Source: Tolumonas auensis DSM 9187
GTDB lineage: Bacteria; Pseudomonadota; Gammaproteobacteria; Enterobacterales; Aeromonadaceae
Reading direction: 5' to 3'
Assembly (NCBI RefSeq): GCF_000023065.1
Contig: NC_012691.1
Coordinates: 1,904,501-1,968,500 of the forward strand
DNA length: 64,000 bases
In this document: piece after piece, positions 18,209 through 64,000 of the stretch
How positions within the stretch are numbered: the first letter of the stretch is position 1
Layout of the letters: each line of letters starts with the position of its first letter
The notes under the pieces: generated by a model
Told to the model about the DNA's origin: nothing
The model's database searches: none
What the model saw: only the letters and a program-made list of their open reading frames with translations
Translations under genes and position numbers: made by a program

Positions 18209-19042
18209 CTATTTTGTTTTTCCCGCCAGGGTTTCTTTCAGAAACGCGACTGTGGTCGCCCAGCCATCGGTGGCGGCTTTGAGGTTGGCGCCATTCATGC
18301 CATTTTGCTGGCGTAAAAAGGCGTGTCCGGCACCGTCATAGATTTTTACATCATAACGTTTAGCCAGCCGTTTCATTTCTTCCTGAGTGGGTGGCACAGT
18401 AGTGGTTACGCGGGCATCGTCACCACCATATAAGCCAAGAACAGGTGCTTTAATGGTGCTCAGTGTTTCCGTTTTCGGGGATACGCCGTAATAAACAACT
18501 GACGCGCCCAGCTCCGGCTGCTGAATGGCCCAGTTAAATGCTACGCCGCCGCCCCAGCAAAAACCGACTACGCCGTATTTTTTACCCCCAGCAGACTGAC
18601 TGGTTGCCCACGCAGCCGCGGCATCCAGTCGACGTTTCAGTTCCGCCGGATCAAGGTTGCGGATCGCCGTGCGCACATCATCACCTTTGAATGATGCAGT
18701 ACCCGCCCCACCTTCCCCTTTACCACTCAGAAAGTCAGGTGCAACCACCAGAAAACCTTCTGCCGCCAGTTGATCGGCGGTGGCCCGGGCCCAGTCGGTC
18801 AAACCAAAAATTTCGTGGATCAGAATAACAACCGGCGCTTTATCGCTGCGTTCCGGATAAACCACCCAGGCATCAACTTTATCGCCTTGTCCGGCATCAT
18901 ATTTTACCCATTCGCCATGACGAGGTGAGGCCTTCAAAGCAGTCATCGCGTCAACTTCCATCGGCGGGAGTTTCAACGGTTGGGCGTTAACCGATAGCAC
19001 GCTGAAAAATGTCAGAATAAGTGCGGATATAAATTGGCGCAT
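18209..19042 (-). CDS. Dienelactone hydrolase family protein, exported
   Basis: 277 aa alpha/beta hydrolase. The nucleophile is Cys in VGFCWGGG, with the acid in YGGDDARV and His in GAGHAF, the Cys-Asp-His triad of dienelactone hydrolases. A signal peptide (FISALILTFFSVLSVNAQ) indicates a periplasmic enzyme. I choose ATG 19042, seven bases after GTGAGG. An upstream GTG at 19054 is that ribosome site itself. It follows moaE on the same strand after 45 bases, but its role is unrelated to cofactor synthesis. A TATAAT-like -10 in the gap suggests its own promoter. Confidence 0.88.
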   Translation of the reverse strand: MRQFISALILTFFSVLSVNAQPLKLPPMEVDAMTALKASPRHGEWVKYDAGQGDKVDAWVVYPERSDKAPVVILIHEIFGLTDWARATADQLAAEGFLVVAPDFLSGKGEGGAGTASFKGDDVRTAIRNLDPAELKRRLDAAAAWATSQSAGGKKYGVVGFCWGGGVAFNWAIQQPELGASVVYYGVSPKTETLSTIKAPVLGLYGGDDARVTTTVPPTQEEMKRLAKRYDVKIYDGAGHAFLRQQNGMNGANLKAATDGWATTVAFLKETLAGKTK

Positions 19043-62987: not shown

Positions 62988-63279
62988 TCATTTCGGTGAT
63001 AAGAACTGTAGGAGATGAATAAAGTTTCATACTGGAATGGCAGAAGTAGCAACAACTTGCTGCCATTTCTAACACGAAAATGCCCCGTTCGGTGTTACAG
63101 CTATCTAGAGGGGAATTCCGTATCACCTAGGTGCACAAATTTTAGTAATGTTCTCTGTGCCCCATCGCTTCGAATCAAGTGGAATTGCATCCATGTGATT
63201 CATACCTCGTTGATTTGACACGTCTCATGGCATGATTTAGCGTAAACGTAAATCCATTCAAATAGCATGGGAAATAGAA
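62988..63279. other. Gap between eda and the edge module
   Basis: Contains a hairpin AATGGCAG/CTGCCATT (63036-63067) without a good T-run, possibly a weak eda terminator, and a TTGACA (63215-63220) that may be a -35 for the next gene, with no convincing -10. A short frame at 63015-63218 shows no protein-like features and I do not support it as a gene. I see no tRNA or att-like direct repeat. Confidence 0.4.
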
Positions 63280-63627
63280 ATGTTTGATTATCTAACCTCA
63301 ACGGTTTTATCTGGTATGGTTTACGATGCAATTTGTGCGGGCGCAACCATTGGTGTCGATATGTTGAAATCAGTTCTTCAAGATTGGATCGTAGATGATG
63401 GTCAAATTTGCAAAATTGTAGAAAAAATGAAAGAGGCTGGCATTAACGAAGATTTGAATCCACAGGCAATTGAGCGAAAAATCAATCAGCATCCTGATTT
63501 AGTCCAATTGTTAGCGCAAATTCACCCATCGAGTACTGTGACGCAAACATCTCATATCGGAAATAATATCAACGCCGGAGCTGGCAGCAATGTTTCGGTT
63601 GGCGGTATCCATATTCATAAGAATTAA
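63280..63627 (+). CDS. Unrecognised 115 aa protein with C-terminal Gly/Asn tag
   Basis: Starts at ATG 63280 (ATGGGAAATAGAA upstream gives only a weak ribosome site). The N-terminal 30 residues are apolar and helical (SGMVYDAICAGATIGVDMLK), the middle is a charged helix pair, and the last 23 residues (93-115) form a tag with IGNNIN, then VGGIHIHKN. The next gene, 14 bases on, begins with a similar tag. I do not recognise the family. The layout is reminiscent of small partners in two-gene phage-defence modules, a recollection and not a search result. Confidence 0.75.
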   Translation: MFDYLTSTVLSGMVYDAICAGATIGVDMLKSVLQDWIVDDGQICKIVEKMKEAGINEDLNPQAIERKINQHPDLVQLLAQIHPSSTVTQTSHIGNNINAGAGSNVSVGGIHIHKN

Positions 63628-63641
63628 GCGGTGATTTCGGC

Positions 63642-64000
63642 ATGACAGACGCTTCAAACAGTCAATATACAGCTATAGGATCAAATCTTAATTTGGCAGA
63701 AGGAGCCACCGCAACTGTTGGTGCCATAACCGTTCACTTTAATGACTTGACCTCACAACGGCTAGTAACCACAGCCAAAGAGATCCTTTTGGCTTTAACT
63801 CGCCATGAGTATAAAACTGCAGAAACTTATTTGGCTGTTTTAGAAGCAGTTAACACAACGAATGATGATTGTCGTGCGTTCATCCAGGTGCTTGAGTACA
63901 AATTCAAACTCAGCCAAGGAGAACCGCCCGCCATTAATACGAATTTATTTCTTCAATTGCTTCGTAGTCAATCATCGGATCCCGTAATAAAAGACATCGT
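63642..64000 (+). CDS. Unrecognised protein, 5' part only, with N-terminal tag
   Basis: ATG at 63642; the frame stays open to the window end (119 codons visible). Residues 12-34 (IGSNLN, then VGAITVHFN) align without gaps to the C-terminal tag of the preceding protein, 10 of 23 identical. After the tag come helical repeats that look TPR-like or similar: RLVTTAKEILLALTRHEYKT, AETYLAVLEAVN, CRAFIQVLEYKFKL. The rest and any catalytic domain lie outside. Co-transcription with the upstream gene is very likely. Confidence 0.7.
   Translation, partial: MTDASNSQYTAIGSNLNLAEGATATVGAITVHFNDLTSQRLVTTAKEILLALTRHEYKTAETYLAVLEAVNTTNDDCRAFIQVLEYKFKLSQGEPPAINTNLFLQLLRSQSSDPVIKDI

What the first reader, a model, noticed from the sequence alone, without database searches (positions are those of the whole stretch)
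63280..64000. Two adjacent genes of unknown function share a 23-residue tag, at the C-end of one protein and the N-end of the next
Seen: residues 93-115 of the first protein and 12-34 of the second align ungapped with 10 identities (I-G, N, N, G, V-G, I, H, N at fixed places). The genes are 14 bases apart, on the same strand, right after a metabolic operon. Inference: the tags form matching beta-hairpins or a shared beta-solenoid edge through which the proteins dock, as adaptor tags do in some bacterial conflict systems. This may be the left part of a defence module. I recall two-gene modules (GAPS6-type) with similar small first genes, but cannot confirm a match.
Basis: partly seen in the sequence, partly recalled or inferred. 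Interest (0 to 1): 0.75.

Follow-up and report, generated by a model that had tools for sequence, protein, structure and literature searches.

The report
Anti-phage GAPS6 pair with matching tags
Two neighbouring bacterial genes are the two halves of a known anti-phage system, and a short matching tag on each protein probably lets one protein switch the other on by an amyloid-type contact.

Summary
Residues 93-115 of protein A and 12-34 of protein B align ungapped with 10 identities; 0 of 20,000 shuffles of the two ends reach the score. The window cuts gene B, which codes for 1,086 residues. The pair is GAPS6: A passes NCBIfam GapS6a and B passes GapS6b. It lies in a 4.1-kb insert that two of six compared relatives lack; one relative carries Hachiman at the same spot.

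The tag is the important part. In 22 of 22 HetE-N/partner loci compared, A's C-tail matches B's N-terminal head better than any other sampled stretch of B. Tags differ between loci and covary beyond the bodies. HetE-N keeps matched tags with two other partner families. This is the layout of bacterial amyloid signalling motifs (BASS), but with a PIN protein in place of an NLR.

Others probably hold the amyloid reading already: PDB 9h9v, "BabyBass soluble domain", is identical (82/82) to E. coli GapS6a. I found no paper on it in the library. Verdict: new member of a known system with a striking tag logic; no amyloid or anti-phage activity was tested.

The parts
63280..63627 (+). gapS6a: 115 aa, HetE-N helical domain (about residues 1-85) plus C-tail of low model confidence
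   Evidence: NCBIfam NF047935 E 2.5e-33, 114.5 bits, cut-off 90; Pfam PF20701 HetE-N E 4.9e-36; AF2 best model helices 7-79, residues 86-115 pLDDT<50; PDB 9h9v 'Babybass' phmmer E 2e-11
63556..63624 (+). C-terminal tag of protein A, residues 93-115
   Evidence: 10 of 23 identities with the B tag; shuffle controls
63642..64000 (+). gapS6b, first 119 of 1086 codons (cut by the window; ends at window-equivalent 66902)
   Evidence: NCBIfam NF047936 E 0, 1160.5 bits, cut-off 850; PIN-TPR-GreABC PF20698 at residues 771-903, E 1.1e-20; full ORF in L002:2142-5402
63675..63743 (+). N-terminal tag of protein B, residues 12-34
63006..63022 (+). left copy of a 17-nt direct repeat (16 of 17 identical) that brackets the two genes; right copy outside the window at L002:5588-5604. 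Two-copy repeats this short can be chance
   Evidence: the repeat finder family D3; the insert between the left gene and the LacI-type gene is absent from G003 and G002

Best explanation
The two genes are a GAPS6 anti-phage module inserted at a defence spot. SHOWN by sequence: GapS6a is a small HetE-N domain with a C-tail tag; GapS6b is a large protein with an N-terminal copy of the tag, a predicted helical-repeat body and a PIN nuclease domain; the tags are matched in every locus compared. INFERRED: GapS6b senses infection through its repeat body; this exposes or clusters its N-terminal tag, which seeds a homotypic cross-beta (BASS-type amyloid) assembly with the tag of GapS6a; the assembly concentrates HetE-N domains, which act as the effector arm (cell death or growth arrest), while the PIN domain cuts RNA, giving abortive infection. 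The same HetE-N module can be plugged by its tag into other large partners.
For: Family membership. In 22 of 22 loci the A tail scores highest at the B head: 45-79 against at most 36 in sampled windows elsewhere in B. Over 16 pairs (20 less 4 near-duplicates) the matched mean is 60.6 against 39.3 mismatched, 0 of 100,000 permutations. Partial Mantel r 0.63 after both bodies, 0 of 20,000, 14 GapS6b pairs. Matched tags on partners that are not GapS6b: L045 (312 aa) and L049/L067 (922/930 aa; L048 incomplete), whose bodies score no higher against GapS6b than the best of 30 shuffles. Of the 20 listed relatives of the L049 partner, 18 align only from residue 32-48 on; six fetched have N-terminal parts of 130-455 residues there, with no hit to a simple tag pattern. 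Kaur 2021 names a HetE-type domain among effector domains at the N-end of TPR-GreAB-C-PIN proteins. E. coli GapS6a = 'Babybass' 9h9v, 82/82. PIN acids D773 in 17 of 17 and D895 in 16 of 17. Defence spot: Hachiman at the same site in G005.
Against: No amyloid, binding or phage assay was possible. The receptor side has no NLR NTPase, so it is not a classical BASS pair. Comparison with the three peptides that aggregated in PMC8086366 is weak, and the non-aggregating control peptide matches some tags as well or better. Pairing is not strictly private: the true B head ranks first in 6 of 16 and the true A tail first in 7 of 16, because many GSGDNV-type tags cross-match. PIN residue E801 is E or D in only 11 of 17. 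Local scores of the tags reach 45 in the N-terminal parts of the L049-partner relatives, so a diverged tag is not excluded there. The tag also occurs in six phage proteins outside such pairs. No HeLo/Bell structure is among the 50 of 65 fold matches shown for GapS6a. Only the best of five models of A is confident. That HetE-N kills cells is shown nowhere that I read.
Confidence: 0.6

Rival explanations
1. The tags make a constitutive, stoichiometric contact (strand addition or a small beta-solenoid) that holds GapS6a on GapS6b as one complex; no amyloid templating takes place, and phage sensing changes the complex.
For: Covarying matched ends are equally expected from a co-folded interface; close spacing of the genes in 8 of 9 loci. 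The tag also occurs in phage proteins with no known amyloid role.
Against: Near-identity of the two tags is more natural for parallel in-register stacking than for a heterodimer (inference); two tags in one B head in L052 and L042; the name Babybass on the E. coli homologue.
Confidence: 0.23
2. The pair works as a toxin and its neutraliser: GapS6a binds GapS6b through the tags and keeps the PIN nuclease off until phage infection frees it.
For: Small first gene, close spacing (14 bases here), PIN nuclease domain in B.
Against: A keeps its tag when the partner has no detected PIN domain (L045, L049; weak, since two GapS6b-like proteins in the same call also lack a PIN hit, one of them a partial frame); Kaur 2021 lists a HetE-type domain among effectors.
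Confidence: 0.1
3. The resemblance is chance between two glycine/asparagine-rich stretches.
For: Both stretches are rich in a few small and polar residues (by eye).
Against: Composition-preserving shuffles: 0 of 20,000; the same relation in 22 of 22 loci.
Confidence: 0.005

Closest known systems
GAPS6 (GapS6a/GapS6b; Gamma-Mobile-Trio-encoded anti-phage system, Mahata et al. 2024 Nat Microbiol 9:3268-83; only its reference line seen, in PMC12774648; that GAPS6 comes from that paper is recalled)
   Same: Both genes over the curated NCBIfam cut-offs; a P. damselae relative lies directly after gmtX
   Different: No gmt gene noticed here (not searched for); tags of the GxN...VxVG type rather than the commoner GSGDNV type
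BASS / amyloid signalling motifs (Dyrka and co-workers; PMC8086366 passages and section 13, PMC9815663 passages, PMC12261475 section 3.3; original BASS paper not held)
   Same: Short matched motifs at the C-end of one protein and the N-end of its genomic neighbour
   Different: Neighbour is a PIN protein with a repeat-like body, not an NLR; small protein is HetE-N; amyloid state not tested
TPR-GreAB-C-PIN conflict system with variable N-terminal effector (Kaur et al. 2021, PMC8195603, one part of section 3 read and passages)
   Same: PF20698 PIN domain; an effector domain shared with fungal HetE is named as one of the exchangeable N-terminal domains
   Different: Here HetE-N is a separate gene joined by tags; Kaur et al. 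call the systems mostly standalone genes, and the part read does not mention tags
BabyBass soluble domain, PDB 9h9v (released 2025-10-08; no paper found)
   Same: Identical to E. coli GapS6a over 82 residues; own GapS6a 36% identical in the fold alignment
   Different: The chains are 82-85 residues, so the tag is not in the entry

Membership tests
GAPS6 | GapS6a protein over curated cut-off | tested here: met
   NF047935 114.5 bits against 90
GAPS6 | GapS6b protein over curated cut-off | tested here: met
   NF047936 1160.5 bits against 850. Of three relatives scanned, L036 also passes both; L037 passes a only; L042 passes neither
GAPS6 | Adjacent, same strand, a before b | tested here: met
GAPS6 | Protects against phage | not testable with these tools
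   needs a plaque assay
Bacterial amyloid signalling motif pair (BASS) | Matched short motifs, C-end of effector-side and N-end of receptor-side protein, neighbouring genes | tested here: met
Bacterial amyloid signalling motif pair (BASS) | Receptor side is an NLR (NACHT/NB-ARC type NTPase) | tested here: not met
   Pfam scan of GapS6b at E up to 1 lists PIN-TPR-GreABC and one sub-threshold family, no NTPase
Bacterial amyloid signalling motif pair (BASS) | Effector side is a Bell domain | tested here: inconclusive
   HetE-N by Pfam; Foldseek finds only 9h9v chains with E<=0.001; pdb_via not available
Bacterial amyloid signalling motif pair (BASS) | Motif belongs to one of BASS1-10 | not tested
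   Profiles not held; comparison with four published peptides uninformative
Bacterial amyloid signalling motif pair (BASS) | Motif forms fibrils and propagates | not testable with these tools
   wet-lab assay
TPR-GreAB-C-PIN system | PIN domain of this type | tested here: met
   PF20698 E 1.1e-20, residues 771-903
TPR-GreAB-C-PIN system | GreA/B C-terminal domain | tested here: inconclusive
   no Pfam hit; strands predicted at 608-660 with pLDDT<50
TPR-GreAB-C-PIN system | TPR-like repeat body | tested here: inconclusive
   AF2 helical repeats 38-593, largely pLDDT 50-87 with a poor stretch at 128-179; no Pfam TPR hit

The most novel reading that the evidence does not exclude
GAPS6 belongs to a wider class in which short, interchangeable amyloid tags act as plugs: one HetE-N effector gene serves at least three unrelated partner families in trans, the tag standing where relatives carry a longer N-terminal part in cis; amyloid signalling thus works in gammaproteobacteria without any NLR, and some phages carry the same tag on their own proteins, possibly as decoys or seeds.
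Probability: 0.3. Interest if true: 0.78.

Novelty: new member of a known kind. Interest (0 to 1): 0.5.

Why it matters
If right, GAPS6 is an anti-phage system run by amyloid templating, with a nuclease protein in the place where fungi and multicellular bacteria use an NLR. It ties together three strands that I did not find connected in the papers searched: GapS6a/b (anti-phage family), HetE-N/TPR-GreAB-C-PIN (domain prediction) and Babybass (a solved structure, apparently named after amyloid motifs). It gives a simple test: delete or swap about 20 residues.

Tried and rejected
Chance similarity was rejected by shuffles and conservation. No relative of GapS6b or of a prophage GapS6a in the phage collection. 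PADLOC has nothing for either protein. Viral-contig scans with GapS6b and Babybass found no relative; with a Pantoea GapS6a only a tag match (L064); with the L058 GapS6a only the contig it came from. Searches with the 9-row alignments failed because no stretch was conserved enough; a 2-row alignment gave two loci. A Rouxiella pair found nothing in E. coli. HetE-N is rare: 2 of 369 class genomes and 2 of 398 phylum genomes pass the Pfam cut-off, own genome included in each; GapS6a passes in 1 of 100 relatives, the own, and a second, sub-cut-off match (L005) was not examined. Of 30 of 369 class genomes with a GapS6b match only the own passes the cut-off; the other 29 were not followed.

Rows left out: two Vibrio records that match like L043 (H10, H11) were not fetched; of the E. 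coli pairs one of 22 and one of 7 was fetched; four near-duplicates were dropped from the 16-pair test and the two E. coli pairs were not in it. A second HetE-N in the Rouxiella plasmid is a degraded stretch at the record start, perhaps an overlap of the record's ends, and was not counted. B is incomplete in L048 (record end, 246 aa), L041 (851 aa, annotation splits the gene) and L062 (frame closes at 380 aa). Likeness of the tags to published amyloid peptides was weak and not selective. Literature: Mahata 2024 and the paper I took for Dyrka's original BASS report (doi from recall) are not held; searches for GAPS6, GAPS6a/b, Babybass and GAPS1/4/6 gave nothing relevant; reviews PMC12881547 and PMC12133306 (passages) and PMC7159879 (passages) did not bear on it.

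Full report
What is there. Window 63280-63627 (protein A, 115 aa) and 63642 onward (protein B) are adjacent on the + strand. The window ends inside B. From the same genome B continues to L002:5402, 1,086 aa. A 93-115 and B 12-34 align ungapped with 10 of 23 identities; no 23-residue window of B does better, and 0 of 20,000 shuffles of the two ends reach the local score.

What it is. NCBIfam names A GapS6a (2.5e-33, 114.5 bits, cut-off 90) and B GapS6b (E 0, 1160.5 bits, cut-off 850). Pfam gives HetE-N for A and PIN-TPR-GreABC for B at 771-903. PADLOC 2023 has neither. That GAPS6 protects against phage is taken from the NCBIfam model names and recalled from Mahata et al. 2024, which I could not read; its reference line was seen in PMC12774648.

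Where it sits. GC is 34-41% over the pair, against 53-54% just left and 49-54% from 5.5 to 8.5 kb of L002 on the right. The gene on the left is an aldolase of the Entner-Doudoroff type and the one on the right a LacI-type regulator (both named by eye). In the genus 10 of 11 genomes, own included, match the left gene; three of these ten match only weakly or as a likely paralogue, at 69-75% identity. I compared six relatives. In two (G003, G002) the left gene is directly followed by the LacI-type gene, an empty site for 4.1 kb. G005 carries a two-gene insert there that is Hachiman: HamA (PDLC00155, 3.7e-104) and HamB (PDLC00192, E 0) (Pfam). G006 carries about 1.4 kb of other genes; in G009 and G010 the right flank was not found in the stretch fetched. 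A 17-nt direct repeat with one mismatch brackets the own insert. So the pair is cargo at a variable spot that also takes a known defence system.

The tags. The four viral contigs were found by searching for the tag, so they are not independent evidence that a tag is there; the match between the two ends is still theirs. In 22 of 22 the A tail scores higher against B's first 60 residues (45-79) than against any other sampled stretch of B (at most 36); in four loci B is short or incomplete, so fewer stretches were sampled. The tags differ: GxN...VxVG type here and a similar form in Pseudoalteromonas and Colwellia, GSGDNVxGxK type in most, and GDAVYGDKVMGDK in P. damselae L042, where A and B share AVYGDKVM and B carries it twice. 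With 16 pairs (four near-duplicates dropped) the matched mean is 60.6 and mismatched 39.3, 0 of 100,000 permutations. Against strict privacy: the true partner ranks first in only 6 of 16 (B heads) and 7 of 16 (A tails). With 14 GapS6b pairs the tail and head distances correlate at 0.63 after removing both bodies, 0 of 20,000. Not all partners called GapS6b-like here pass the NCBIfam cut-off: of three relatives scanned L036 passes, L037 and L042 do not.

Partner exchange. HetE-N keeps a matched tag with two partner families whose bodies score against GapS6b no higher than the best of 30 shuffles: a 312-aa protein (L045) and a 922-930-aa protein (L049, L067, and L048 in part). In E. coli F8704-2 the latter pair lies between an Ogr-like gene and a phage late-control D gene, a P2-type prophage position (the type is recalled). 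Of the 20 listed relatives of that partner in plasmids (22 records matched), 18 align only from residue 32-48 on. Six were fetched: each has 130-455 residues before the aligned part; Pfam names one of six (HTH_3, under its cut-off), and a simple tag pattern hits none, though local scores up to 45 leave room for a diverged tag. So the tag seems to stand where relatives have a part fused in cis. Kaur et al. 2021 (PMC8195603, part 4 of section 3 read; passages) describe similar logic for TPR-GreAB-C-PIN proteins, with a domain shared with fungal HetE as one of the exchangeable N-terminal effectors; that part says nothing of tags and calls the systems mostly standalone.

Structure and the amyloid link. 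AlphaFold2 with a 3-row alignment gives A a helical domain and leaves 86-115 below pLDDT 50 (best model 73.9 mean, the other four 42.5-54.1). In B 1-37 is below 50, but so are 507 of 1,086 residues, so this is weak evidence of disorder. The A model matches PDB 9h9v, 'BabyBass soluble domain', E 4.2e-7, 36% identity; phmmer agrees, 2e-11. The Babybass sequence is identical over 82 of 82 residues to E. coli GapS6a of strain EcPF15; a pair of this type is in 22 of 5,426 E. coli genomes, in one of them with the second gene annotated in pieces among the 20 listed. The name points to BASS, bacterial amyloid signalling sequences, and 'soluble domain' to a second part that is not soluble; this is an inference from a name, since no paper with the word is in the library. 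BASS motifs are matched motifs at the C-end of Bell proteins and N-end of NLR neighbours (PMC8086366 passages; [quoted passage not shown] GAPS6 has the layout, in gammaproteobacteria, without an NLR. A direct comparison of tags with four published peptides did not help: weak matches to two of three aggregating ones and equally to the non-aggregating one (peptides from section 13).

Mechanism. Most likely B senses infection, its tag seeds the tag of A, and the assembly triggers the HetE-N arm and the PIN nuclease. Shown: families, matched and covarying tags, conserved PIN acids D773 (17 of 17) and D895 (16 of 17, one row lacks the region); E801 is E/D in 11 of 17. Not shown: amyloid formation, direction of signalling, toxicity, phage protection.

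Novelty. The pair is a new member of GAPS6. The tag reading for GAPS6 did not turn up in the ten searches of the papers held, but the PDB entry suggests that others are on it.

Noticed in passing
L054 6097-6126, L060 1571-1600, L063 3860-3889, L055 7633-7662, L056 606-635, L061 626-655 (viral contigs): Six of ten viral contigs with the tag pattern carry it (Q.HSG[ST]GDNV[AG]G[DN]K or close) in phage proteins with no HetE-N gene noticed beside them (not searched by family); three are contigs of 180-243 kb; in four of six it is in the last quarter of the open frame, in one near its start. Relatives of the L063 protein in named phages match only outside the tag in the 15 rows shown of 64. Could be a decoy or seed, or an unrelated use.
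   Followed up: partly
L090:1082-5238 (genome G005): Hachiman HamA/HamB at the same chromosomal spot as the window's GAPS6 pair.
   Followed up: yes
L067:5001-8119 (E. coli F8704-2): GapS6a with an unnamed 930-aa partner between an Ogr-like gene and phage gene D; 7 of 5,426 E. coli genomes cover at least 80% of the Buttiauxella pair. A candidate two-gene defence system; the Buttiauxella partner (L049) has no Pfam, PADLOC or NCBIfam name.
   Followed up: partly
L053:623-1561 (genome G417): A 312-aa protein with a tag matching its HetE-N neighbour and no Pfam, NCBIfam or PADLOC match.
   Followed up: no
L052:8414-10163 (genome G587): Next to the GapS6b-like gene are two genes that read like DarT and DarG (by eye, not searched).
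   Followed up: no
L002:15947-18889: A second low-GC stretch (35-41%) about 10 kb to the right with small genes of unknown kind and, at 18329-18889, a ParE/RelE-like toxin and antitoxin by eye.
   Followed up: no
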